The notes under the pieces are model-generated. The model was not told where the DNA came from and searched no databases. It was given only the letters and a program-made list of their open reading frames with translations. A stretch of 64,000 bases of DNA. Source: Actinoplanes sp. NBC_00393. GTDB taxonomy: Bacteria > Actinomycetota > Actinomycetes > Mycobacteriales > Micromonosporaceae. Shown piece by piece: positions 1 to 10,839 of the stretch; position 1 is the first letter of the stretch, and every line of letters begins with the position of its first letter. The DNA lies in contig NZ_CP107942.1 in the NCBI RefSeq assembly GCF_036053395.1, positions 3,748,501 through 3,812,500 on the forward strand. The letters run 5' to 3'. A program made the translations under genes and the position numbers.

Positions 1-201
1 CTGCTGCAACGCCCGGGCCTCGGCGGCCAGGCCCGCCACCAGCGCCGCCAGGCGGGCCCGGACCTCGCGTTGCAGATACTCCTCCAGGGCTCGCCAGGCC
101 TCCGGGGCGGCCACCGTGTCGAGGTCGGCGAGAGCTTCCACGGCCAGCCGCCAGTGCGCGACCTCGGCGCCGGTCTGCTCCCGTTCGAGCCGGTCAGTCA
201 T
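1..201 (-). CDS. Hypothetical protein, 5' part only (runs off the window)
   Basis: Only the first 67 codons are in the window; the gene continues past the left edge. The ATG at 201 overlaps the end of the preceding gene (its TGA is at 194-196), so the two are translationally coupled. The visible part is acidic and helical (MTDRLEREQTGAEVAHW, then Ala/Leu/Glu/Arg-rich heptad-like sequence) and fits a coiled coil. I do not recognise a family. Its position makes it the last visible member of the leftward gene set that starts near 6.7 kb. Confidence 0.7.
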   Translation of the reverse strand, partial: MTDRLEREQTGAEVAHWRLAVEALADLDTVAAPEAWRALEEYLQREVRARLAALVAGLAAEARALQQ

Positions 202-2347
202 GGTGCAGCCCGGGGCGCACGGTGAGTGTCGGAGCCGGCGGCGCGGCGGTTCCGATCCCGTCCCGGTCCGGGAAGGTGAACCGGTAGGTGAGGGTCACCC
301 CCGCCGCCGGATCCTTGGCCGCCTGGGTCAGGGTGGTGGCCGCCGCGGGCAGCTGGGCGGACACCCCGGCGACGATGCCGTCGGCGAGCCGGCCCGCCAG
401 CCCGGCAGCGCCCGAGTCCAGCCGCACGCCGTGCCGGGTCAGCAGTTTCGTCAGCCGCTCGGCGAGCCGCTGTTGCGCGGCCGGACCGACCAGGCGGCGT
501 ACCAGCGCGACGACCTGCACCATCTCCCCCTTGTCCAGGTGCCCGGCCAGGGTGTGCGCGTCACGCTCGCCGACCCGCAGGTGTACGCCGAGCACCGGCT
601 GCGCCGCCGTGAGGTCCAGCCGCAGCGCGAACAGGCGGTGCCGCCGCAGCGCGCGCCGGCCCACCCGTAGCCGGTAGAACCGCCGTCTGCGCCCGGACCC
701 GGCCAGCCGGGGGTTGCGGGCCAGCGCGGTCGCGGTCGCCGCGCTCAGTTCCTCGAATTCACCGGCCGCCGCCGCGATGTCCGCCAGGTCGCCGACCTCG
801 TACGCCGCCAGGTGCCCGGGGTTCGCCCCGTCCAGCAGCTCGTACACCTCCAACTCGGCGGTGACCGGCCAGGACTGCACGCCCGCGTCCAGCAGCCGGC
901 TCTCCAGGGTGTCCCCGCCGGCCATGGCCACCGAACGGGCGATCGGACGGCTGATGCGCACCGGCAACACCTGGCTGTACTTCTTGAACCGGTAGCAGGG
1001 CCGGGTCGCCCGCGGCATCATCACCCAGAACCCGTGCTCGCCCTCGGACTCGCTCTCCACGACCTCGGGGCGCAGCACCGCCGCCGGCAGGTGGCGCGCG
1101 GCGGCCTCGGCGAACGCGGCCTGCGTCTCGGCCGCCACCAGCAATTCGTCGCCGAGCTGCTCCGGTGGCAGTGCCAGCACCTCGTGCACGGTGTCCTCCA
1201 CCGTGGCCACCAGGGCTTCGGCGCCCAGGCCCGGATCCGCGCCGGTCTCCGCCTCGAGCCCGAGCAGGCCCAGCCCGGCACTGGCGATGTGCCGGGAGAG
1301 CAGCCGCGCCGCTTCCGGACCCACCATGCCTTTGATCAGCTGGGCGATCCCGTTGCCGAGGATGTTCACGATCTTCTCGCGGCCGACCACGCCCATCGCC
1401 AGCCTGATCGCCGGGCGTGCGGCCATCACCGCGGGGAGGAACTGCTCCATCTGGGCGGCCGGCGGCTGGTTCGGCTCGGCGTCGGTGAGCTCGCGGGCCA
1501 GCCGGGCGCGGGCCGCGTCCAGGTCGCGCAGCGGGTCACCGCCGGTCTCGCCGGTGTCGGCTGCCTCGGCCAGCAGGTGTTCCAGTGCCGCGTCGTTGGG
1601 CGCCAGCACGGCGTCGGCCAACTGCCGGTCGAACTCCGCGGCGAGATCCGGGGCGGACTCCGCCTCGCCCGTGAACCTGGCCGCCAGCCGGGTCGCGATC
1701 GGGCGTACCGCCGCGGGCAGTTTGCCGATCGCCTTGTCCAGCACGCGGCGCAGCAATGGCTTGATCAACTGCCGGAGGATGCCGAAGAGCTTGCCCAGCG
1801 GCATGATCTTCGCCACCGCCTTGAGGCCTTTGGCGGCCAGGTTACGCACGCCGGAGGCGAGTTTGCGCGCCTTGTTCAGCACGGACTTGAAGAACTGTTC
1901 CTGCGCGGCCAGCGGCCCCGCCGGGTCCAGCCCGGCAACCGACTCCAGCTCACCTTCCCGCAGCGAGTCGAGGGTACGGTCGGCGAAGTGCTCCTCCAGG
2001 CGCCCGAGCATCCGGCCGGCCTCCGCCGCCACCGACTCCAGCCACTGCCGGGTCTCCTCGGCGGCCATCGCCGGCGCGTCGGACTCCGCCGACCAGGTGG
2101 CCGCGCCGCGCAGGTGCCGGCCGGCGGCCTCCTCGCCGAGCGCGCGGACCGCCTCCTCGAACTCGTCGTCGTCCAGCTCGGCGGCGAGCGCGTCGACCGC
2201 CTGCCGGTCCAGGTCCTCCCACTCCGCAGTCATCGCCTCCGCGAACGGGGCAACCAACGCGGTGCCCACCGTCACCGGTGGTTCGGCGCCGGCGGTGAAC
2301 ACGCCCGCGGCGAACGGTGAGGCGGACAGGTACTCGGACGTTGTCAC
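194..2347 (-). CDS. Large helical protein of unknown function (717 aa)
   Basis: I do not recognise this family. The GTG start at 2347 overlaps the upstream stop (GTGA), which settles the start although the frame stays open upstream. Residues 30-145 are acidic and helical. Residues 150-224 are basic and amphipathic (KSVLNKARKLASGVRNL, then alternating Leu/Ile and Lys/Arg). Residues 303-365 are glycine-rich and hydrophobic (ILGNGIAQLIKGMVG). Residues 438-470 carry a distinctive aromatic/basic patch (GFWVMMPRATRPCYRFKKYS). The C-terminus (575-717) looks beta-rich. There is no signal peptide. The amphipathic centre could contact membranes, but that is inference. It lies in the same run of genes as two response-regulator-like proteins and an SGNH hydrolase. 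Confidence 0.8.
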   Translation of the reverse strand: MTTSEYLSASPFAAGVFTAGAEPPVTVGTALVAPFAEAMTAEWEDLDRQAVDALAAELDDDEFEEAVRALGEEAAGRHLRGAATWSAESDAPAMAAEETRQWLESVAAEAGRMLGRLEEHFADRTLDSLREGELESVAGLDPAGPLAAQEQFFKSVLNKARKLASGVRNLAAKGLKAVAKIMPLGKLFGILRQLIKPLLRRVLDKAIGKLPAAVRPIATRLAARFTGEAESAPDLAAEFDRQLADAVLAPNDAALEHLLAEAADTGETGGDPLRDLDAARARLARELTDAEPNQPPAAQMEQFLPAVMAARPAIRLAMGVVGREKIVNILGNGIAQLIKGMVGPEAARLLSRHIASAGLGLLGLEAETGADPGLGAEALVATVEDTVHEVLALPPEQLGDELLVAAETQAAFAEAAARHLPAAVLRPEVVESESEGEHGFWVMMPRATRPCYRFKKYSQVLPVRISRPIARSVAMAGGDTLESRLLDAGVQSWPVTAELEVYELLDGANPGHLAAYEVGDLADIAAAAGEFEELSAATATALARNPRLAGSGRRRRFYRLRVGRRALRRHRLFALRLDLTAAQPVLGVHLRVGERDAHTLAGHLDKGEMVQVVALVRRLVGPAAQQRLAERLTKLLTRHGVRLDSGAAGLAGRLADGIVAGVSAQLPAAATTLTQAAKDPAAGVTLTYRFTFPDRDGIGTAAPPAPTLTVRPGLHHD

Positions 2348-2670
2348 TCGAGTCTCCCCCGGATCATCTCGACGAGCTGTGACGGCGACATCCCGCCCAC
2401 CTCGGTCCGGTGCGCACGCAGCTCCCACAGGGCGGCACGCCGCCCGTCGTCGCCGAGCGCGATGACCTTCAGGTGGCAGGGCCGCAGGATCCGCTCCGCG
2501 TCGTCGAGGTCGCAGAGGACCACGTCGGCGGCAGCGGGCCAGATCGCAGCCGCTGCCGGATCGGCCGCGACGTCCACGATCCGCATGTCCGCACACCTTC
2601 CGATCAACTGGACGATCACGTCGCGCAGGATCCCCGGCGAGCCGATCACCAGAATCCGGATCTCTCGCAC
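2344..2670 (-). CDS. Small receiver-like protein, stand-alone
   Basis: About 108 residues resembling a response-regulator receiver fold: a first strand (IRILVIGSPG), an Asp-containing third strand (DVVLCDLDD) and later strands (LKVIALGDDG). No output domain follows. The acidic pair normally found after the first strand is absent (GSP instead of DD), so canonical phosphorylation chemistry is doubtful. I chose GTG 2670 because a GGAAGG ribosome binding site lies upstream. An in-frame ATG at 2748 overlaps the previous stop and would add 26 residues rich in Pro/Gly. The gene overlaps the next one by GTGA, so it is coupled to the 717-residue protein. Confidence 0.65.
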   Translation of the reverse strand: MREIRILVIGSPGILRDVIVQLIGRCADMRIVDVAADPAAAAIWPAAADVVLCDLDDAERILRPCHLKVIALGDDGRRAALWELRAHRTEVGGMSPSQLVEMIRGRLE

Positions 2671-2737
2671 GCCGAACCCGCCTTCCGCACCGGTGCCCGG
2701 TGCCGTCCCAGCGAGTCTTTCCGGCGCCGGCGGGTGG

Positions 2738-3439
2738 TCACCATGCATCGGCGGGGCCATCTGCGGCATGAACCGAACGGTTCACAGCAGCGTCACGGTG
2801 AGCCCGCAACCAGCCCGGGACCTCGGTACGCCGGCGCAGGCGCAGCTTCTCCAGAATGTGATGCACGTGGTTCTTCACGGTCGCGACCTCGATGTGCAGG
2901 CGGCCGGCGATCTCCTGATTGGTCAGCCCGCGGTCGATCAGCGCGACCACCTCGTGCTCACGGGCGGTCAGCTCCTCGCCCGGGTGCTCCGCACGGCGTC
3001 GCCGTCGCCGGCCGAGCGACTGGAGCAGCAGCCCGACGATGTGCGGGGAGTAGAACGCCTCGCCGCGGGCCGCCCGGTGGATCGCTGCCACCAGGTCGTC
3101 CAGGCTGCCGTCACGCGGCACGTACCCGGCGAGCCCGGCCTCGGCGCAGGCCACCACCCGGGCCTCGGTGTCCGGCACGCCGAGCCCGATCACCCGTACC
3201 CGGGGCGCGCGGTCGGCGAAGGCGCGGGCGATCGATTCCGCCAGGGCCATCGTCATGTCCACCACAGCGACGTCCGGGCCGGCCCGGATGATCCGCTGCA
3301 CGTCGGCCGGCGCGTCCGCGGCGACGTCGGTCACCGTGATCCCCGCCCGGCCGTGCAGCACGTCGCGGAGCCCTTCGCGGTACAGCCGGATCTCGGCCAG
3401 GATGGCGATCGAAACCGTAGTCCCCCGTGCCACCGTCAC
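2738..3439 (-). CDS. LuxR/NarL-type response regulator with degenerate receiver
   Basis: 233 residues. The N-terminal receiver-like domain (about 10-125) keeps an Asp in the phospho-acceptor strand (AVVDM) but has Ala-Glu where the acidic pair is expected (ILAEIRLYREGL). The C-terminus is a clear LuxR helix-turn-helix (about 155-215: ELTAREHEVVALIDRGLTNQ, then KNHVHHILEKL). An Arg-rich linker joins the two. The GTG at 3439 has a GAGGGGG Shine-Dalgarno. No histidine kinase is adjacent, so it may be phosphorylation-independent or serve a distant kinase. It is probably a regulator of the surrounding leftward gene set. Confidence 0.85.
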   Translation of the reverse strand: MTVARGTTVSIAILAEIRLYREGLRDVLHGRAGITVTDVAADAPADVQRIIRAGPDVAVVDMTMALAESIARAFADRAPRVRVIGLGVPDTEARVVACAEAGLAGYVPRDGSLDDLVAAIHRAARGEAFYSPHIVGLLLQSLGRRRRRRAEHPGEELTAREHEVVALIDRGLTNQEIAGRLHIEVATVKNHVHHILEKLRLRRRTEVPGWLRAHRDAAVNRSVHAADGPADAW

Positions 3440-3470
3440 GCCCCCTCGTGTCTCGGCACCGATATGTCGT

Positions 3471-4007
3471 TCAGCAGGGCTGCGGTACGCCCCGGATGCT
3501 CAGCCCCGATGCGTGGACGTAGGCGCCCGGGCGCGGCTGCGTCAGACGCATCCAGCGGCCGGTCGCGCATGCCACGACGACCCGGTCGCCGGCGTCGAGC
3601 CGGCCGACGACCTGCCAGCTGGTGCCGGGGCCGGACCGCAGGTTCCACGTCCCCGGCCGTACCGTGCCGGTGACGCCGGTCTCCGTGGTGCCGCCGTTGA
3701 GGTAGCCGAAGCCGACGACCAGCGACCCGATCAGGACCAGCACGGCCGCCACGATCCACAGCAGGGTTCCGGTCCCGCCCGAGGTGTCCGCCTCCTCGTA
3801 CGGCAGCCCGTGTTGCTGGTGCACGACCCGCAACAGGCTCTGCACCTCCTGGTCACCCGGGTTCGCCCTGGCCAGGAAGAGCAGTTTCGGCGCTGCCTCG
3901 GCGTACCGGCCCTGCTCGACCAGCTGTGCCGCATCGCGGCGCAGGCCGGCGTAGATGAGCAACTGCTGGTGATGTTGCTGTTGCATCCGATGCATGTGCC
4001 CGTGCAT
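3471..4007 (-). CDS. Single-pass membrane protein with extracytoplasmic SH3b-like domain
   Basis: 178 residues in three parts. A cytoplasmic His/Gln-rich and TPR-like helical N-terminus (1-75, with AAQLVEQGRYAEAAPKLL) is followed by one transmembrane helix (81-103) and a C-terminal bacterial SH3-like domain (about 112-172). The SH3b signature is WNLRSGPGTSWQVVGRLDAG, followed by a VVV strand and a conserved Trp. SH3b domains commonly bind cell wall peptides or glycans, so this one may sit at the wall side of the membrane. It lies 12 bp after the preceding small gene, within the same run of leftward genes. ATG 4007 has no strong ribosome binding site; ATG 3995 is an alternative. Confidence 0.75.
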   Translation of the reverse strand: MHGHMHRMQQQHHQQLLIYAGLRRDAAQLVEQGRYAEAAPKLLFLARANPGDQEVQSLLRVVHQQHGLPYEEADTSGGTGTLLWIVAAVLVLIGSLVVGFGYLNGGTTETGVTGTVRPGTWNLRSGPGTSWQVVGRLDAGDRVVVACATGRWMRLTQPRPGAYVHASGLSIRGVPQPC

Positions 4008-4019
4008 GGCGGAGCGCCG

Positions 4020-4373
4020 TCAGCCGCTGTGCGCGGCCAGCCAGTCGCCGAGCGCGCGCAGCGGGCCGCTCAGTGACTGCCCGGCCGCGGCGAACGCGCC
4101 GGCCGCGCTCAGCAGCCGGGTGAACCGGTCGAGAGCGCCGGCCGCCGTCGCGGTGTCCGGATACCGTTGGTCCAGCGCCGCGTCGGCACGGTCCAGCTCC
4201 TGCTGGGCGGCGGCGTCCATGGTTGGCGGCAGGCGCAGCTCGTCCAGGACGTCGCGCAGCTCGGCGATCCGCATGCGAGCGTCGATGTTGACGGTGGCGC
4301 CGGGGCTGTTGTTGACCTGGTAGCCGCGTTCGTTGTTGTAGATCGTGTTGGCGTTCTGCTTGCCGATCTCCAT
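4020..4373 (-). CDS. Small cytoplasmic protein with NNSPGATVNI motif
   Basis: 117 residues starting at ATG 4373, which is preceded by an excellent GAGGAGG ribosome binding site. The first 35 residues (KQNANTIYNNERGYQVNNSP) resemble the short Asn/Gly beta segments that precede effector-associated or STAND-related domains in actinobacteria. The remainder is alpha-helical. No membrane segment is present. The N-terminal motif could be a small adaptor or assembly segment. This comparison is by pattern memory only, and the function is unknown. It lies between two membrane-protein genes in a tightly spaced run. Confidence 0.7.
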   Translation of the reverse strand: MEIGKQNANTIYNNERGYQVNNSPGATVNIDARMRIAELRDVLDELRLPPTMDAAAQQELDRADAALDQRYPDTATAAGALDRFTRLLSAAGAFAAAGQSLSGPLRALGDWLAAHSG

Positions 4374-4384
4374 GGTGGCCTCCT

Positions 4385-4816
4385 CTAGCGGCCCATCGGG
4401 GGCTGCCACGCCCACGGACTGCGGGCCTGCAAGTCGCGCAGCCCCCGCCGCCGCGACGCGGCGACGATGTGCATGACGATCCCGGCGAGAAGCACGAACT
4501 GCCCGACGAACCCGATGGCGAAGCCGACGGCGAACAGCGGCATCGCGTCGAAGAACGGGCCCTGCCCGTTCACCATCTCGCTCGGGTCGACGGGGCCGAT
4601 CTCGTTCATGAAGCTCAGCAACTGGAGCATGGCGATGATGCAGCCGCCGGCGACCATCAGGAAGCCGACGACGACCAGGTGCCGGGCTTTGGTGCGGGCA
4701 CTCGCGATGTCCCGCAGGAAGTTATCGCGGGCCTGGACGTACTGGTTGTACTCCCAGTTGATGATCTGCTCCGCGTCCTGCTGTCCGATGTACCGCTGGG
4801 GTGGTGGGTCGTACAC
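4385..4816 (-). CDS. Two-helix membrane protein of unknown function
   Basis: 143 residues starting at GTG 4816, with a very strong AAGGAGG ribosome binding site. The cytoplasmic N-terminus (VYDPPPQRYIGQQDAEQI) is followed by a short helical stretch. Two transmembrane helices lie at about 47-70 and 93-118, separated by a short extracytoplasmic loop with several acidic residues. The C-terminal tail is basic, then WAWQPP. No family recognised. It is 13 bp downstream of the SGNH hydrolase gene and 11 bp upstream of the NNSPGATVNI gene, so the three are almost certainly co-transcribed. Confidence 0.75.
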   Translation of the reverse strand: MYDPPPQRYIGQQDAEQIINWEYNQYVQARDNFLRDIASARTKARHLVVVGFLMVAGGCIIAMLQLLSFMNEIGPVDPSEMVNGQGPFFDAMPLFAVGFAIGFVGQFVLLAGIVMHIVAASRRRGLRDLQARSPWAWQPPMGR

Positions 4817-4829
4817 TTGTCCTCCTTCG

Positions 4830-6662
4830 TCAGCCCGGGTAGTCGAATTTGACGGTGCCGAGGCCCGCGGTGCGCGAGGTGGCGTACACCTGCCGGCCGT
4901 TGATGCGCAGCCGCAGGCTGCTCATTCGGGCCACGTCCGGCCCGTCGCCGTCGCCCAGTTCCAGAGCGAGCGCCGTGATGTCGTGCAGCCGCAGGTCGCC
5001 GAAGGTGTCGACGACGCTGAGCCGGCCGAACGGGTGGTCCAGCCGGAACCGCCGCTCCGGGCTGATCCGCAGGAAGACCGGGAAAGCGATGTCTGGGTCC
5101 AGGCCGGGCAGGGCGATCAGCGGCGTCAGGTCGAGCTCGACGGTGAGGACGTCCACGACGGCGTGCTGTATGGCCGCGGCCAGCCCGGCAGCCGGGTCGA
5201 GGCCGTAGCTGCGCAGGAAGTCGCGGGTGCTCAGCGGGGCCGACGGCGCGGTCCCTCCGATCAGGTCACGCACGCTCTGCGTACGGTGCCGGGCATGCCG
5301 GGCCACGATCCGGTCGGCGTACCGGCGGGCGCCTCGCTCGTTGGGGTGCAGGAACGAGGCGATGACCGCGACCTCGATCCGGGCGATCTCGGCGGAGACC
5401 CCGGTGCGCGCGGTGGCCGCGGCGGCTCGGTCGCCACCGGAGGCGACGACCTCGGCCAGCCGGTCCCGCAGCGACGCCGGCCCGTCCAGCCGCTCACGGA
5501 GCTCGGACAGGCCACGTAACAGCTCAGAGAGGTCGCCGATCGGTGGCCGCGGGGGCACCAGCGCCAGGATGGTGAGCAGTCCCCGAGCGTCGCGCAGGGC
5601 GCTCAGGTGCGCGCGGCGCGGGATTCTGGCTTGCCGGTCGGCCAGCGCCGCGTCGCGTACCCCGTCGCTGTCGCCCTCGCCGGGCGGCCGGTAGCCCTCG
5701 TGCAGGAAAGCGGTGCCGGTCGCGAACAGCGCGTTCTCCGGGCGAAAGCCCGGATGGACGAAGTAGACGCCGGGCCGGCGGTCGCCGGCTTCGACGCGTT
5801 CCGCCACCGCCCGGCGCAGCCAGTACAGCCCGCGAGTGTGTGCGAACGCGGCCCGCCGGATCGCCTCCGTCACGAGAGCGTCGATGTCCTCGGTGCCGAA
5901 CAGCTCACCGAGCAGCACGAGCGGGAAGAACAGCCGGGAGAAACCGGAGGTGAGGATGTCGTTGAGCCACAGCTGCCAGCCGGGCCGCTCGCTCATGAAC
6001 CGGAACATGTCCGCCATCCGGCTCCGGTCGGACTTCGCCGAGAACGGCGGGTAGTAGCCGGTCACCGCGATGACCGCGGCCGGGAACTTGTTCCGGGCCT
6101 CGGCCAGCACCGCCTTGAGCTCGGTGAAGGCGGCGGCCTCGATGGCCGCGTCGATCTCGTCCAGTGACGGGCCGTCCAGTGGATCCAGGACCGCCTGCAG
6201 GCCGACGTCGTTCACACTGCCGTCGATGATCACCAGGTCGGTGGCCGCACCGACGGCAGCGGGCAGATCGGCGATCTGCCGGCCGATGGTCGGGAAGGTG
6301 CTCGGCACCTCGGCGAAGATCCGGCGGGCCACGTCCTCGTCACGCCCGGCGAAGAAGTCCAGCGCCTGCCGGTCGGTCCCGAACAGCGCGGGATAGGTGT
6401 CGTAGAAGACGTGCCGGTCCCCGGCCGCAACCCGCCGGGTCGTGCCGGATGGCAGCCGCACTGTCAGCCGCGACCGGGAATCCGCGGTGGCCCGCAGCTT
6501 CGCCCCGGATCGCGCGAGCATCCGGGTCACCAGCGGGCCGGCATCGAGTTCGTCAGCCAGCCGGCGGGCGGCGAGCAGCGCGAACTTGTCCTCCGTGGCG
6601 AGTCCCTGCCCCCACATGGCGGAGTCGCCGAGGACCGCGACCCGCAGTTCCCGCCCGGCCAT
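4830..6662 (-). CDS. SGNH/GDSL-family hydrolase, 610 aa, with C-terminal beta domain
   Basis: This protein shows the SGNH esterase/lipase blocks. The nucleophile block is VAVLGDSAMWGQG with Ser14. Block III is DGSVNDVG with Asn151-Asp152. Block V is HPNERGARRYADRI with His439. The normal domain is about 200 residues; here blocks III and V are separated by nearly 290 residues, which include an insertion, and a beta-rich C-terminal domain (about 500-610) is added. There is no signal peptide, so it acts in the cytoplasm or leaves by another route. ATG 6662 has a GGAAGGGAGG ribosome binding site and is preferred over ATG 6734. It is the first gene of the leftward run after the inverted repeat at 6727. 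The substrate is unknown. Confidence 0.85.
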   Translation of the reverse strand: MAGRELRVAVLGDSAMWGQGLATEDKFALLAARRLADELDAGPLVTRMLARSGAKLRATADSRSRLTVRLPSGTTRRVAAGDRHVFYDTYPALFGTDRQALDFFAGRDEDVARRIFAEVPSTFPTIGRQIADLPAAVGAATDLVIIDGSVNDVGLQAVLDPLDGPSLDEIDAAIEAAAFTELKAVLAEARNKFPAAVIAVTGYYPPFSAKSDRSRMADMFRFMSERPGWQLWLNDILTSGFSRLFFPLVLLGELFGTEDIDALVTEAIRRAAFAHTRGLYWLRRAVAERVEAGDRRPGVYFVHPGFRPENALFATGTAFLHEGYRPPGEGDSDGVRDAALADRQARIPRRAHLSALRDARGLLTILALVPPRPPIGDLSELLRGLSELRERLDGPASLRDRLAEVVASGGDRAAAATARTGVSAEIARIEVAVIASFLHPNERGARRYADRIVARHARHRTQSVRDLIGGTAPSAPLSTRDFLRSYGLDPAAGLAAAIQHAVVDVLTVELDLTPLIALPGLDPDIAFPVFLRISPERRFRLDHPFGRLSVVDTFGDLRLHDITALALELGDGDGPDVARMSSLRLRINGRQVYATSRTAGLGTVKFDYPG

Positions 6663-6726
6663 CGCGCCTCCCTTCCGCCGGCGATGCCGTTCACTCCGGG
6701 AGGGCGTGACATCCGACGGCGCAAGT

Positions 6727-6745
6727 TGTGCCACGCGGTGGCACA
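6727..6745. promoter_or_regulatory. Perfect inverted repeat, probable operator
   Basis: TGTGCCACGCGGTGGCACA has 8-nt perfect arms and a 3-nt spacer. It lies between the SGNH hydrolase start (6662) and the end of the ATPase regulator gene (6753). A second element with the same 8-3-8 layout lies at 9976. A transcription-factor operator is the simplest reading; a short hairpin terminator for the ATPase gene is an alternative. Confidence 0.6.
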
Positions 6746-6752
6746 GCGCGGC

Positions 6753-9700
6753 TCAGTGCAGCGTCCAGTGCACCGGTTGCCTCGGATCGGGCTGGTAGAC
6801 ACAGGTGGCGCCGGTCGACACGGTGGCCGCCAGGTAGCCGCCGAGGACCGGTTCGACGGCGCTGATCTCACCGATGGCACGTTTGATCGCCTTCTGTACC
6901 GCCGTGCGGGCGCGCTCCCCTGGGTCCGGGAACCGCCGGTCGCGCCCGCTTCGGCCGGTGACCTGGCGCAATTCGTCCAGTAGGGCGTCGAGCTCGGTGC
7001 GGAACCGGCGTACCGCGGCCGGGTCGGCGGCGTCCTCGGCCGCTTCGATGCGGCCGGTCAGCTCGGTCACCCGCCGCCGGTAGGCGGCCCGCGCCCGCTC
7101 GTCGAGGATCGGCTGCCCGCCGGGCGTGGCCAGCGCGCCGGCCGCCGGGCCACCGGCCAGCTGCAACGCCGAGATGGGCCGGCCGGGATTGGTCAACAGC
7201 TGCGCCAGATAGCGGGCGCCGAGCCGATCCGGTACGGCCGCCTGATGGTCCCCCATGGTCAGCAGCCACTGGCGGTGCCGCCGCACGATACTCGCCTGCG
7301 GGTGGGCGATGGCGCGCAGCCGTTTGCGCCAGTCGGCCGACCGGGCGGTCAGGCCCATGTCGTCGGCGCGCTGCGCGGCGTCGGCGAGCAGCTGGCCGGC
7401 CCGTTCGGCATCGCCTGCCAGGCCCCGGCACAACAGCGCCCCGGCAAGGTCGGCGAGGGTCACCGCCAGCATCGGGCGGTTGCCCAGCAGGACGTTGGCC
7501 TCGACCGCCCGCTCCAGGTGGGCGACGGCGTGGCCGGTGTCGCCCGCGGCCGCCGCGGCCAAGCCGAGCGCCCGTTCGGTGGAGCCGAAACAGGTGGTGG
7601 CCAGGGACGGCATGATCGGCAGATCGGCGTACGGCAGGAGCAGGTCGTACGCCTGGCGGGCCAGGTCCGCCTCTCCCAGCTCGTGCGCGGTCTGCACGAT
7701 CGCCAGCATGCCGGCCAGCCAGGTGCTCGACTGCGGCAGCGCGGCGAGCCCCGGCCGGGTCACCCGGCGCAGGATGGCCCGGGCCCGATCCGGTGAGCCG
7801 TGGCGCGCGGCGATGCCCGCCATGGTGGCCTGGAAGCCGAACTCGGCCGGGTTCAACGTCGGCGAATCGGCGATCTGCGCGATCGTCTCCAGCAGCTCGG
7901 CGTCACGGCCCTGCAGCCAGCGGATCGTCAGCAGGTGCGCGCCGAGGTAGCCGAGCGCGTCCGCGTCGCCGACCTCGGTACCGAGCTGAAAGCAGGCAAG
8001 CGCCGCTGCCTCGGCCTCGTCCAGCCGCCCGGCCCGGATCAGCAGCATCACCTCCATCGCCTCGGCGACGTAGCGCACACTGCGACATCCCAGCACCTCG
8101 GTGCGCGCCCGCAGCTCGGCCAGCGACCGGACCGCCTCCGCATCGCCCAGGTGGAACAGGTCCACGGTGCGCCAGCACAGACCTACCAAGGTCAGCATTC
8201 CCTCGCCGGACGACGCCGCCACGGTGATCAGCTCATCGGCCACCGGCAGCCGGGCGTGCGTGTGCTCGGGGGTCAGCAACGCGTGATGGTAGAGCGACAG
8301 GGCCTCGGCCAAGGCCGGCCCGTCGCCCAGCCCGCGGGCCTGCTCGACGGCGGTGAGCACCGGGCCGAGCGGCCCGCCCCGGTACACCCGCTCGGCGGCC
8401 AGCCGGGCAGCCAGCCGCCCACGCAGCACCCCGTGGTCGGCCGGCAGCCGTTGCAGGGCCCGTCGCTGCAGACCGGCGACGCGTTCCCAGTCCGTCCGGG
8501 TCCGGTGCTCGTTGACCCACACCCCGCCCAGACCGAGCGCCGCCCGGGCCAGCGCGCTCGGGTCGTCCTCCGCCTCGGCCTGGCCGGCGGCCCGCTCGAA
8601 CACCTGCCGGGCCTCGGTGAGCCGGCCGCACCGCAGAATCGCCTCGGCCCACTCGACCAGCAGAGTGCCGGGCGGATCCGGCAGGGCGGCCCGCTCGTGC
8701 ACGGTCACCGCATCACCGAGCATCGCCGCCGCCTGCTCGTAGCCGAATCCGCGCACCATCGAACGGGCGGCGATACGGCACGCTTCGACCGCCGTACCGG
8801 CCCGCTGCGCCGAGAGCGAGGCCGACCGGACCGCGTGGTACGCCCGGCGCGCCAGCCGCTGCGCGCTCACCGCACCGGCCGCAACGAACAGGTCCGCCGC
8901 GCGGGCATGCAACTCGGTACGCCGAGCCAGCCCGATCCCGCCGACCAGCACTTCCCGGACCAGGTCATGGCCGACCGTGACTTGCTCGTCGCCGTCGACC
9001 GTGGCCAGGCCCGCGGACACCGCCTCGGCGACCGCCGCCTGAACCTGATCGGCCGGCCGGTGGCACACCTCGGCCACATCGCGGATGCCGGCCGGCGTAC
9101 CCAGCAGGGCGATCACCTCGAGCACGTCGCGGGTGGCCGGGGTGAGCCGCTCCAGTGAGACAGCGATGACCACGCGCAGCCCACCCGGGCGCAGCGTCCC
9201 GCGTGGACCGGTCCGGCCCGCGGCGAGCAGGCGATGCAGGTGCAGCGGGTGCCCGTCGGTCACCCGGAACAGCGCGCGCAACAGGTCATGGTCGGTCACC
9301 GGTTCGCCGTGCGCCCGCAGGAAGGCCTCCGTCTCGGCCAGGTCGAACCGGTCCAGCGGCACGACCGTCGCCTCCCGGTCGACTTCCCAGAGCGCGTTCA
9401 GCGGCCCGTCGACCTCGGTACGGCAGGCGAGCACGAGCAGCAGCGGGAGCTGGGCCAGCGCGCGGGCCACGAATCGGGTGAGCAGGACGGCGCCGGGGTC
9501 CGCGGCGTGCACATCGTCGATGACGACCACCGCCGGCGACCGGGCACACACGGCCGCCAGATGCTCGGTGACCGCAGCGAACCGGGCGAACCGTTCCGGT
9601 TCCACGATCGCACCGCCGGCGTCACCGTCGAACAGCGGTCCAGCCTCCCGGTCGCCGAGCTCGGTGAGGATCGACTGCCACGGCCAGAGCGGCGGCGCGC

Positions 9701-9959
9701 CGCCGTCGGACCAGCACGATCCCCACGCCACCGCCAGCCCACCCCGGCGGGCCCGGAACACGACCTGCCGGCAGAAGCTCGTCTTGCCGACGCCGGACTC
9801 GCCGCTGACCAGGACCAGGCCGCCCTCGCCGTGACGCGCGGCGGCCACCGTGTCCTGGACCAGATCCAGCTCGCGTCCCCGGCCCACGAAGTGGCCGAGA
9901 AGCGCCGAATCCCCCGGCATCCTGAGAGTCTGCCAGCCCCGCGACCGTTCGACTGTCAT
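6753..9959 (-). CDS. Large STAND/AAA-type ATPase regulator with TPR-like middle
   Basis: 1068 residues. The N-terminal NTPase has Walker A GESGVGKT (53-60) and Walker B VVVIDD (about 144-149), followed by helical-bundle and winged-helix segments. A long helical TPR-like region covers about 350-830. The C-terminal module (about 890-1068) has the pattern GARYLAQLLTNPGR, then RAAYRRRVTELTGRI and RARTAVQKAIKRAIGEI. That module is known at the end of other actinobacterial ATPase/LuxR-like proteins, but no classic LuxR helix-turn-helix is visible. This is the architecture of MalT/AfsR-like signal-integrating regulators. ATG 9920 is an alternative start; neither has a strong ribosome binding site. 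Inverted repeats flank both ends, so it may control itself, the SGNH run and the divergent gene at 10048. Confidence 0.8.
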   Translation of the reverse strand: MTVERSRGWQTLRMPGDSALLGHFVGRGRELDLVQDTVAAARHGEGGLVLVSGESGVGKTSFCRQVVFRARRGGLAVAWGSCWSDGGAPPLWPWQSILTELGDREAGPLFDGDAGGAIVEPERFARFAAVTEHLAAVCARSPAVVVIDDVHAADPGAVLLTRFVARALAQLPLLLVLACRTEVDGPLNALWEVDREATVVPLDRFDLAETEAFLRAHGEPVTDHDLLRALFRVTDGHPLHLHRLLAAGRTGPRGTLRPGGLRVVIAVSLERLTPATRDVLEVIALLGTPAGIRDVAEVCHRPADQVQAAVAEAVSAGLATVDGDEQVTVGHDLVREVLVGGIGLARRTELHARAADLFVAAGAVSAQRLARRAYHAVRSASLSAQRAGTAVEACRIAARSMVRGFGYEQAAAMLGDAVTVHERAALPDPPGTLLVEWAEAILRCGRLTEARQVFERAAGQAEAEDDPSALARAALGLGGVWVNEHRTRTDWERVAGLQRRALQRLPADHGVLRGRLAARLAAERVYRGGPLGPVLTAVEQARGLGDGPALAEALSLYHHALLTPEHTHARLPVADELITVAASSGEGMLTLVGLCWRTVDLFHLGDAEAVRSLAELRARTEVLGCRSVRYVAEAMEVMLLIRAGRLDEAEAAALACFQLGTEVGDADALGYLGAHLLTIRWLQGRDAELLETIAQIADSPTLNPAEFGFQATMAGIAARHGSPDRARAILRRVTRPGLAALPQSSTWLAGMLAIVQTAHELGEADLARQAYDLLLPYADLPIMPSLATTCFGSTERALGLAAAAAGDTGHAVAHLERAVEANVLLGNRPMLAVTLADLAGALLCRGLAGDAERAGQLLADAAQRADDMGLTARSADWRKRLRAIAHPQASIVRRHRQWLLTMGDHQAAVPDRLGARYLAQLLTNPGRPISALQLAGGPAAGALATPGGQPILDERARAAYRRRVTELTGRIEAAEDAADPAAVRRFRTELDALLDELRQVTGRSGRDRRFPDPGERARTAVQKAIKRAIGEISAVEPVLGGYLAATVSTGATCVYQPDPRQPVHWTLH

Positions 9960-9975
9960 CTACGTGACCCGAGGC

Positions 9976-9994
9976 TGTGCCACGGGGCGACACA
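9976..9994. promoter_or_regulatory. Imperfect inverted repeat, second probable operator
   Basis: TGTGCCACGGGGCGACACA has the same 8-3-8 layout and an identical left half-site to the element at 6727, with 6 of 8 arm positions pairing. It lies in the 88-bp region between the divergent ATPase regulator and tail-fibre-like genes and could serve both. Confidence 0.5.
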
Positions 9995-10047
9995 ACGATG
10001 TCACGCCTTCACTGCGTCGGTCGGAGCACGGTGAAAGGAGCCGCAGC

Positions 10048-10839
10048 ATGGTCAGCCTTCAGGTCGAACGCAGCGTCGACGGCACCGCCCAGCGCGTCGG
10101 CGACACCGAGGGCGGCGTCAGCGCGCTGTCCCTGGCCACCGCCACGATCGAGGTGGCCGGCGATGTCGTCATCAGCCGCCGCGGCGACGGCGCGGTCCTG
10201 CTGACCCTCGGCACCGAACGACGCTGGGTGCTCCGTCAGCTCGGCACCGGCCCGGGCACCGCGCTGGAACTGGCCAGCATCGGCGGCGCCGCGGAAGGTC
10301 AGCCGATCGCCAACAAGAATCTGATCATCAACACGAGTGGGAAGGTGGGCATCGGCACCACCACCCCGCAGGCCACCCTGGACGTCAACGGCAGCATCCG
10401 GGTCGCCGACGACGTGGTGCTGGCCGGTGCCGACTGTGCGGAGGAGTTCGACCTGGCACCGGAGACCTGCGCCGAGCCCGGAACCGTCCTGGTCATCGGC
10501 GCCCAACGACGGCTGCACGCGTGCACCGAGCCCTACGACCGCCGGGTGGCCGGCATCGTCTCCGGTGCCCACGACCGCCCGGGCATCGTCCTCGGCCGTC
10601 GCCCCGCACCGACCGGCATCCGGCGCGTCCCGATCGCCCTGAACGGCACCGTCTGGTGCTGGGCCGACGCCGCCGACGACCCGATTCGCGTCGGCGACCT
10701 GCTCACCACGGGCACGCGCCCGGGCCACGCCATGCGCGCGGCCGACAGCACCCGCGCCTTCGGCGCGATCGTCGGGAAGGCCCTGGCCGACCTGAGCACC
10801 GGCACCGGCCGAATCCCGGTGCTGGCCACCCTCCAGTGA
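10048..10839 (+). CDS. Tail-fibre-like protein with GTTTP repeat and IMC-like C-terminus
   Basis: 263 residues from ATG 10048, with AAAGGAG just upstream. The centre carries the phage and bacterial fibre motif KVGIGTTTPQATLDVNGSI (about residues 95-120). It is followed by a segment like the intramolecular-chaperone/peptidase G2 family (GADCAEEFDL, RRVAGIVSGA). It ends with the common fibre C-terminal module (RVPIALNGTVWCWADA, VGDLLTTGTRPGHAM, GAIVGKALADL). Such modules form trimeric fibres or surface adhesins. There is no signal peptide. It is read divergently from the ATPase regulator. No other phage structural genes are nearby, so it looks like a domesticated fibre rather than part of a prophage. 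Confidence 0.75.
   Translation: MVSLQVERSVDGTAQRVGDTEGGVSALSLATATIEVAGDVVISRRGDGAVLLTLGTERRWVLRQLGTGPGTALELASIGGAAEGQPIANKNLIINTSGKVGIGTTTPQATLDVNGSIRVADDVVLAGADCAEEFDLAPETCAEPGTVLVIGAQRRLHACTEPYDRRVAGIVSGAHDRPGIVLGRRPAPTGIRRVPIALNGTVWCWADAADDPIRVGDLLTTGTRPGHAMRAADSTRAFGAIVGKALADLSTGTGRIPVLATLQ

What the first reader, a model, noticed from the sequence alone, without database searches (positions are those of the whole stretch)
1..10839. Unfamiliar gene set: STAND-like ATPase, SGNH hydrolase, SH3b and NNSPG proteins, degenerate receivers, tail-fibre-like protein
The genes from 6662 leftwards are tightly spaced (overlaps or gaps of 11-67 bp) and join a large helical protein with an amphipathic centre, a membrane SH3b protein, a two-helix membrane protein, an SGNH hydrolase and two receiver-like proteins lacking the usual acidic pair. 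A MalT/AfsR-like ATPase lies upstream and a fibre-like protein runs divergently. None of the usual contractile-injection or phage structural genes is visible, so this may be a distinct surface or conflict system. The link is inferred from order, spacing and the shared repeats.
Basis: partly seen in the sequence, partly recalled or inferred. Interest (0 to 1): 0.72.

Follow-up and report, generated by a model that had tools for sequence, protein, structure and literature searches.

The report
Tagged cell-wall enzyme gene module
Beside a phage-tail-like injection machine, this soil bacterium carries part of a conserved, apparently undescribed gene set in which a membrane-active-looking protein and interchangeable enzymes, many of them wall-cutting, share one short tag, which hints at an unknown way of getting enzymes to the cell envelope.

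Summary
The genes are real but are not one conserved system. (1) Just left of the window, same strand, lies a full extracellular contractile injection system (eCIS) cluster, so 'no contractile-injection genes' was a window-edge artefact. (2) The 717-aa protein is the first gene of a separate module running left out of the window: 717 – 415 aa (HETGH metallopeptidase-like) – 169 – 425 – VanY-type enzyme. All 33 loci found through the 415-aa protein, in Actinomycetota and Pseudomonadota, have the 717-type gene beside it; 32 also have the 425-type gene. Pfam and NCBIfam match none of the core proteins. The 717-type protein has a conserved cationic amphipathic stretch and shares a short N-terminal SPFA-like motif with the variable downstream enzymes (19 of 23, against 5 of 279 neighbouring genes); these lack signal peptides and are often wall hydrolases. 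(3) The SGNH protein and the 143/NNSPG pair are patchy pieces; some relatives of the pair carry an FHA domain. Best reading: a mosaic island in which an undescribed tag-sharing envelope-enzyme module, perhaps lysis-cassette-like, sits beside an eCIS. Conservation and motif are shown; the mechanism is inferred.

The parts
1..201 (-). 5' end of the 415-aa HETGH metallopeptidase-like gene (continues 1046 bases left of the window; L010:6954-8201)
   Evidence: HETGH at 186-190; H186, E187, H190, E227, D231 and H266 invariant in the 27 aligned members
194..2347 (-). 717-aa core protein of the module: N-terminal SPFA motif (residues 10-13) in a low-confidence, probably disordered tail; cationic amphipathic stretch (about residues 150-207); C-terminal alpha/beta part
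   Evidence: no family in Pfam, PHROGs, PADLOC or NCBIfam at the limits used; overlaps the 415-aa gene by 8 bases
2344..2769 (-). 141-aa (or 108-aa from 2670) degenerate receiver without output domain
   Evidence: acidic pair missing, acceptor Asp kept; no Pfam match at E<=0.1
2738..3439 (-). 233-aa atypical NarL-type regulator (receiver plus LuxR HTH)
   Evidence: GerE 1.1e-13; receiver 3.5e-6, below its cut-off; acidic pair AE, conserved Lys replaced by Arg
3471..4007 (-). 178-aa single-pass membrane protein with C-terminal SH3b domain
   Evidence: SH3_3 2.1e-7; one TM-like window
4020..4415 (-). 131-aa (117-aa from the inner ATG) NNSPG protein
   Evidence: matches in 11 of 100 relatives, own genome included; an FHA-domain gene stands beside the match in 3 of the 9 loci opened (L104, L106, L112)
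4385..4816 (-). 143-aa two-helix membrane protein, without the FHA domain that some relatives carry
4830..6662 (-). 610-aa SGNH/GDSL-type protein
   Evidence: G12-D13-S14 and N151 nearly invariant, D152 and H439 invariant in 21 aligned; the block V Asp position is an invariant Ser436
6753..9959 (-). 1068-aa AAA_16/STAND-like ATPase with TPR-like repeats, no recognised LuxR or BTAD domain
   Evidence: AAA_16 7.5e-19; Walker A GESGVGKT
9850..10839 (+). fibre-like protein (start 9850 or, by codon score, 10048), divergent from the ATPase gene
   Evidence: best PHROG tail match covers residues 153-193 only; no Pfam match at E<=0.1

Best explanation
The stretch is a mosaic. Its left end is the first gene of a conserved module (717 – 415 – 169 – 425 – exchangeable enzyme) that runs out of the window and ends 445 bases short of an eCIS structural gene cluster. 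Shown: the module keeps its order across two phyla, its core proteins match no Pfam or NCBIfam family, and the 717-type protein and most first-downstream enzymes share an N-terminal [STNAD]PF[A...] motif. Inferred: it is a cell-envelope attack or lysis cassette. The enzymes, which have no signal peptide, are docked through the shared tag to other module proteins (the 425-aa helical protein or the 415-aa metallopeptidase-like protein being the candidate receptor or processor). They reach the envelope when the cationic amphipathic 717-type protein disrupts or crosses the cytoplasmic membrane. This would work like a holin-endolysin pair but is built from unrelated parts. In this genome it may free or assist the neighbouring eCIS. 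The receiver, LuxR and STAND genes upstream are probably its or the eCIS's regulators. The SGNH protein and the 143/NNSPG pair are accessory pieces with their own histories. Likelihood: conserved separate module beside an eCIS about 0.95; shared tag functional about 0.75; envelope-disruption mechanism about 0.35.
For: Synteny: all 33 loci found through the 415-aa protein have the 717-type gene upstream on the same strand and 32 have the 425-type gene downstream (the exception, L045, ends at the contig edge). Five further loci from a class sample keep the order (L123-L127). Motif: SPFA, first seen in the G000 pair, occurs in the first 100 residues of 10 of 23 first-downstream enzymes against 0 of 279 other genes of the same loci (Fisher p 7.6e-13). 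The wider form, chosen afterwards, gives 19 of 23 against 5 of 279, and 27 of 32 717-type proteins (first 120 residues). The motif lies in a part of the 717 model with pLDDT under 50. Enzymes (33 proteins, hits at E<=0.001): PG_binding_1 9, tyrosinase 6, VanY 5, other M15 models 1-3 each, glucosaminidase 2, trypsin 2, and amidase, NlpC/P60, M23, phage lysozyme, pesticin-like, PLD, SIR2 and M35 one each (parts in 85, 86). None of the 33 has a signal-like hydrophobic N-terminus, against 74 of 349 other called genes. The cationic stretch is kept in 28 of 28 homologues (9-18 K+R, 0-3 D+E). Exchange: in L127 the enzyme is 70% identical to ours while 717, 415 and 425 are 36, 47 and 39%. eCIS next door. 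BTAD regulator genes near the module in 6 of 6 tested, picked by eye.
Against: No TM-like segment in the 717-aa protein by hydropathy, so it is not an ordinary holin. Tyrosinase, trypsin and SIR2 are not endolysins, and some of the enzymes match only families of unknown function or nothing. Motif misses: 4 of 23 first enzymes (L020, L023, L027, L052) and 5 of 32 717-type proteins (L028, L029, L032, L040, L043; in these the called N-terminus is cut or uncertain); in L127 the enzyme lacks it. Two distant relatives of the 415-aa protein (L128, L129) have no 717- or 425-type match beside them; the two weakest genome hits were not opened. For Actinomycetota that is 8 of 24 against 46 of 295 class genomes (47 of 296 with our own; p 0.04, not corrected for relatedness). 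The nearest eCIS relative, G040, lacks the module. In G093 the module lies about 12 kb from the baseplate J gene of a different eCIS: two linked cases in all. Foldseek gave nothing at E<=0.001 for either model.
Confidence: 0.4

Rival explanations
1. The 717-aa protein and the VanY-type enzyme are cargo or effectors of the neighbouring eCIS; the motif is an eCIS loading tag.
For: Same strand and adjacent to the eCIS cluster in G000, and about 12 kb from the baseplate J gene of another eCIS in G093. Geller et al. 2021 (PMC8213781, passages) list peptidoglycan hydrolysis, NAD+ phosphorylase and peptidase among predicted functions of eCIS-associated toxins.
Against: 23 of 32 module genomes show no PF14065 marker, and in the 9 that do it is on another contig. 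No eCIS_core domain in the 717-aa or VanY-type proteins. tblastn at 1e-4 with this cluster's proteins found no eCIS structural gene in the 33 loci, which reach at most 10 kb to either side.
Confidence: 0.2
2. A housekeeping or developmental wall-maturation cassette: tagged hydrolases, tyrosinases and proteases are put into the producer's own wall in a regulated way, without killing anything.
For: Peptidoglycan-binding domains (PG_binding_1 in 9 of 33) and tyrosinases (6 of 33) suit wall-located enzymes. Pathway-type BTAD regulator genes near the module (6 of 6 tested).
Against: Patchy distribution (717-type in 3 of 100 relatives, own included; 415-type in 10 of 296 class genomes, own included). 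Enzyme swapping and SIR2, PLD and pesticin-like members look like conflict genes.
Confidence: 0.25
3. A protein compartment or complex: the shared peptide packs enzymes into an assembly built from the 425-aa and 717-aa proteins, as encapsulin cargo peptides do.
For: Short shared N-terminal peptide, often twice in the 717-type protein, and mostly helical core proteins without a clear structural match.
Against: No match to a shell family in Pfam or NCBIfam; the cationic stretch is unlike a shell protein.
Confidence: 0.1
4. One reading: one eight-gene surface or conflict operon.
For: Contiguous, same strand, gaps or overlaps of a few tens of bases; co-transcription is plausible.
Against: SGNH in none of the 297 other genomes of an order sample; the 143-aa protein has 3 homologues besides itself in the protein search; the NNSPG gene recurs beside FHA or 143-like proteins without the others; the 717-type gene recurs in 33 loci without a match to the SGNH, 143, NNSPG or SH3b genes at 1e-4 within the flanks held.
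Confidence: 0.05

Closest known systems
Phage holin-endolysin lysis cassettes
   Same: A membrane-active-looking protein beside a signal-less peptidoglycan hydrolase in one gene cluster
   Different: The 717-aa protein is large and has no TM segment by hydropathy; further conserved genes; a shared tag; enzymes such as tyrosinase also occur
Extracellular contractile injection systems (neighbouring cluster)
   Same: Sheath, gp19 tube, CIS_tube-LysM, spike, gp25, baseplate J, tail I, Pvc16_N, AAA and eCIS_core proteins all present to the left
   Different: The window genes are not eCIS structural parts and, apart from an LuxR-type ATPase, have no counterpart in the closest related cluster, G040
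eCIS-associated toxins (Geller et al. 2021, PMC8213781, passages seen)
   Same: Enzyme classes overlap (peptidoglycan hydrolysis, NAD+-directed, peptidase); GerE and BTAD regulators near eCIS loci
   Different: No DUF4157/eCIS_core in the 717-aa or VanY-type proteins; the module mostly occurs without an eCIS beside it
CisA of Streptomyces coelicolor (PMC12237407, passages seen)
   Same: A membrane protein encoded beside a contractile injection cluster (compare the SH3b protein)
   Different: CisA is described as an unstructured N-terminus, one TM and a C-terminal domain resembling periplasmic substrate-binding domains; ours ends in an SH3b domain; no sequence comparison was run
Sle1/Sle2 phage-tape-measure-related CIS effectors (PMC13277306, abstract seen)
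   Same: Actinobacterial, membrane-associated, near CIS
   Different: No tape-measure match for the 717-aa protein in Pfam or PHROGs; its C-terminal part is conserved rather than variable
MalT/AfsR-type STAND ATPases
   Same: AAA_16 P-loop ATPase with TPR-like repeats (1068-aa protein)
   Different: No LuxR or BTAD domain recognised in the 1068-aa protein

Membership tests
eCIS (cluster left of the window) | sheath, inner tube, baseplate J, gp25, spike, Pvc16 and AAA ATPase genes together | tested here: met
   Phage_sheath_1 3.4e-15, gp19 3.9e-42, CIS_tube 3.7e-26, Phage_base_V 2.4e-21, gp25 2.8e-22, Baseplate_J 5.6e-19, Pvc16_N 1.6e-25, AAA 7.4e-32
eCIS (window genes as members) | kept with the eCIS core in related clusters | tested here: not met
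   absent from G040, the closest cluster (48-69% for the core genes), apart from an HTH match in a 919-aa ATPase; absent from the stretches of four other clusters of the genus apart from short HTH or ATPase matches
Holin-endolysin cassette | signal-less peptidoglycan hydrolase | tested here: met
   VanY 1.2e-13; no signal-like N-terminus; holds for many but not all module enzymes
Holin-endolysin cassette | holin with transmembrane segments | tested here: not met
   no window of 19 residues reaches 1.6 on the Kyte-Doolittle scale in the 717-aa protein
eCIS-associated DUF4157 effectors | eCIS_core domain in the protein | tested here: not met
   none in the 717-aa or 775-aa proteins
Zinc metallopeptidase (415-aa protein) | HExxH motif conserved | tested here: met
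   H186, E187, H190 invariant in the 27 aligned members; E227 also invariant
Zinc metallopeptidase (415-aa protein) | match to a known peptidase family or fold | tested here: inconclusive
   no Pfam or NCBIfam match and no convincing match among solved-structure sequences (best E 0.75); its fold was not predicted
Polymorphic toxin system | exchangeable toxin domains behind a conserved trafficking part | tested here: inconclusive
   exchangeable enzymes yes; the shared part is a short motif only
Polymorphic toxin system | cognate immunity gene | not tested
   no search was made
Encapsulin-like compartment | shell protein family | tested here: inconclusive
   no Pfam or NCBIfam match for the four core proteins; folds of two of the four only, without a clear match
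SGNH/GDSL hydrolase | block I GDS, block III ND, block V DxxH (motifs recalled) | tested here: inconclusive
   GDS and ND conserved, His439 invariant, but the Asp position of DxxH is an invariant Ser436; Pfam match below its cut-off
MalT/AfsR-type regulator | LuxR or SARP DNA-binding domain | tested here: not met
   no GerE or BTAD listed for the 1068-aa protein at E<=0.1
NarL-type response regulator (233 aa) | receiver with acidic pair, acceptor Asp and Lys, plus LuxR HTH | tested here: inconclusive
   HTH and acceptor Asp present; acidic pair AE, Lys replaced by Arg

The most novel reading that the evidence does not exclude
An undescribed class of tag-directed envelope-enzyme system spread over Actinomycetota and Pseudomonadota. 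Four core proteins without a described family, one of them a cationic amphipathic, presumably membrane-active protein carrying the same [ST/N]PFA(E) peptide as its cargo, deliver or release exchangeable signal-less enzymes (wall hydrolases, tyrosinases, proteases, PLD, SIR2) across the membrane without Sec or Tat. In a few genomes it has been placed beside an eCIS as its release device or companion weapon. More distant plasmid-borne forms in Ensifer and Paraburkholderia (L077, L078) may follow the same principle.
Probability: 0.35. Interest if true: 0.85.

Novelty: categorically new. Interest (0 to 1): 0.64.

Why it matters
If the module works as proposed, bacteria in two phyla share a Sec-independent way of bringing wall-degrading and other enzymes to the envelope, with a peptide tag that predicts its cargo from sequence alone. 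That would give a meaning to hundreds of unnamed proteins (660 relatives of the 415-aa protein passed among the 7,998 candidates scored) and a concrete, testable candidate for how some eCIS producers open their cells. If it is only a regulated wall-enzyme cassette, it is still a conserved gene set with no described family in the libraries searched.

Tried and rejected

Limits: gene calls outside the window are from my own codon-score caller, trained on this genome, so starts can be wrong and some genes are missed in lower-GC loci. The 33 loci come from two short peptide patterns and are not a census. The motif pattern was widened after seeing the data. The loci include near relatives (three Mumia, three Amycolatopsis, two each of Phycicoccus, Cellulomonas, Nocardioides and Bradyrhizobium), so counts are not independent. 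10 of 33 loci dropped out of the first-enzyme count because no 425-type gene was called, or no same-strand gene within 400 bases after it. The 33 enzymes are first and some second genes after the 425-type gene, including three that lie further off (L039, L051, L052). In the L123-L127 test four of five enzymes bear SPFA, but those four are one genus.

Full report
Where it lies. The window is bases 3748501-3812500 of a single-contig genome of 11,433,213 bases. G059, named by the tool as the same genus, shares contig length and module coordinates with the Paractinoplanes tereljensis contig behind L031, so the host is an Actinoplanes-group actinomycete.

The observation. The domains agree with Pfam where Pfam sees anything. 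Both receivers lack the acidic pair but keep the acceptor Asp. The repeat search shows only short imperfect families.

What lies to the left. I fetched 38 kb left of the window, called genes and scanned 20 of them, the one that crosses the window edge included, with Pfam. From 5.6 kb leftwards on the same strand there is a full contractile-injection cluster: AAA ATPase, Pvc16_N, sheath, gp19 tube, an eCIS_core protein, CIS_tube-LysM, spike, gp25, baseplate J, tail I, fibre-like proteins (one with Peptidase_S74) and a second, 1183-aa eCIS_core protein. The closest relative in the genus is in G040 (55% over the baseplate J protein; the next long matches are 35-38%; 46 of 67 genus genomes have some match, own included). 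The G040 cluster begins with the same ATPase gene and has none of the window's accessory genes apart from an LuxR-type ATPase at its far end. Four other clusters of the genus (G043, G046, G016, G783) are more distant; three of them have a gene with a short match to our LuxR regulator nearby. Geller et al. 2021 (PMC8213781, passages seen) report GerE beside 25.8% of eCIS loci and BTAD as a shell domain, so regulators of this kind beside an eCIS are expected.

The 717-aa protein belongs elsewhere. A relative of the 717-aa protein is found in 3 of 100 relatives, own included. In G093 and G059 the same genes follow: 415-type, a gene of about 170 aa, 425-type, then further genes that include an enzyme. 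A scan of genome contigs with the 415-aa alignment gave 33 loci in Actinomycetota and Pseudomonadota. All 33 have the 717-type gene on the same strand upstream and 32 have the 425-type gene downstream. None matches the SGNH, 143, NNSPG or SH3b proteins at 1e-4 in the flanks held (up to 10 kb); two match other window genes in part (L022 the ATPase, L038 the 233-aa regulator), and looser searches add a few HTH or ATPase matches. The 169-aa protein is matched in 3 of 33 only, but a called ORF of 65-230 aa stands in its place in 25 of 33 by reading the lists. The 415-aa family had 660 relatives among 7,998 scored candidates; the 120 listed are unnamed or 'hypothetical' and without Pfam domains. 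Pfam and NCBIfam match none of the four core proteins.

The shared motif. The 717-aa protein and the VanY-type protein of this genome both carry SPFA within the first 13 residues. In the loci, SPFA occurs in 10 of 23 first-downstream enzymes against 0 of 279 other genes. A wider form, [STNAD]PF[AGSTEVR], occurs in 19 of 23 against 5 of 279, and in 27 of 32 717-type proteins, often twice some 25 residues apart. The four first-downstream enzymes without the wider form are in L020, L023, L027 and L052. In this genome's 102-kb stretch the wider form hits 6 of 78 genes, but SPFA only these two. In five further loci, four enzymes (one genus) carry SPFA and one does not.

The enzymes. The 33 proteins scanned (first and some second genes after the 425-type gene, those of G000 and G093 included) hold peptidoglycan-binding, VanY/M15, glucosaminidase, amidase, NlpC/P60, M23, lysozyme- and pesticin-like, trypsin, M35, PLD, SIR2 and tyrosinase domains; others match only families of unknown function or none. 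None has a signal-like N-terminus, against 74 of 349 other called genes, module core genes counted among those. In L127 the enzyme is 70% identical to ours while the core proteins are 36-47%, which indicates exchange of the enzyme gene.

The 717-type protein. All 28 aligned homologues keep a cationic amphipathic stretch, roughly FLGxLxxKA...LxxLRxLVRPLLxRVLxxAI. There is no TM-like window in ours. The model gives helices up to about residue 430 and an alpha/beta C-terminal part. More distant loci with an HExGH protein (L077, L129) also carry a protein with a FLGGLxKKx-like cationic stretch, and L077 has 'SPF' in another acidic protein there; L078 and L128 show acidic proteins in the same place but no such stretch by the pattern used. 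These distant forms were read by eye, without a statistical test.

Mechanism. Inference from anatomy: signal-less wall enzymes plus a presumably membrane-active partner plus a shared tag suggest docking and release at the envelope, functionally like a holin-endolysin pair. The weak points are the lack of TM segments, the non-lytic enzymes and the absence of any experiment.

The other genes. The SGNH protein has 26 relatives among 7,992 scored candidates and none in the 297 other genomes of the order sample. The 143-aa protein has three homologues besides itself. An FHA domain followed by a 143-like part is seen in P0148, L104 and L106, and an FHA protein without a 143 match also stands beside the NNSPG gene in L112; L111 has a 143-like piece. 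The NNSPG gene itself matches in 11 of 100 relatives, own included. The pair is thus partly a unit of its own, here without the FHA domain.

Novelty. I rate the module categorically new in the narrow sense that no described family or system was found for its core and its tag in the libraries and searches named. The literature searches made cover only their terms. The window genes beyond the 717-aa protein look like accessory or regulatory genes of known kinds.

Noticed in passing
L011:11233-15733 (G000:C1:3721733-3726233), left of the window, inside the eCIS cluster: A class I lanthipeptide-like set lies between a fibre-like gene and a DUF4157 gene: LanB-like dehydratase (964 aa, Lant_dehydr_N 1.3e-144), LanC-like cyclase (417 aa, 1.3e-42), and directly upstream an ORF whose C-terminus has 11 Thr-Cys pairs, ten of them exactly four residues apart (counted by eye), behind an FDLD-type leader (leader motif recalled).. 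Not seen in the related G040 cluster.
   Followed up: partly
L104:1862-2677, L106:1876-2565, L112:1842-2543: Proteins with an FHA domain beside NNSPG genes; in L104 and L106 the FHA domain is followed by a part like the window's 143-aa protein. The window's copy lacks the FHA domain.
   Followed up: partly
P0007, P0008, P0009, P0013: SGNH relatives of about 700-820 aa carry Ig-like ASH/HYDIN-type Pfam domains (precomputed accessions; family names recalled).
   Followed up: no
L127:6151-13823: A module whose enzyme is 70% identical to the window genome's VanY-type protein while its core is 36-47%: enzyme gene apparently exchanged between modules.
   Followed up: partly
L077 (Ensifer adhaerens plasmid), L078 (Paraburkholderia plasmid), L128, L129: Distant relatives of the 415-aa protein beside acidic proteins; in L077 and L129 one neighbour carries a cationic amphipathic stretch. 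Possibly a wider superfamily of the same module.
   Followed up: partly
G093:C3:79963-111247: A second module close to an eCIS cluster of another kind, with a gene that looks trypsin-like in the enzyme position.
   Followed up: partly
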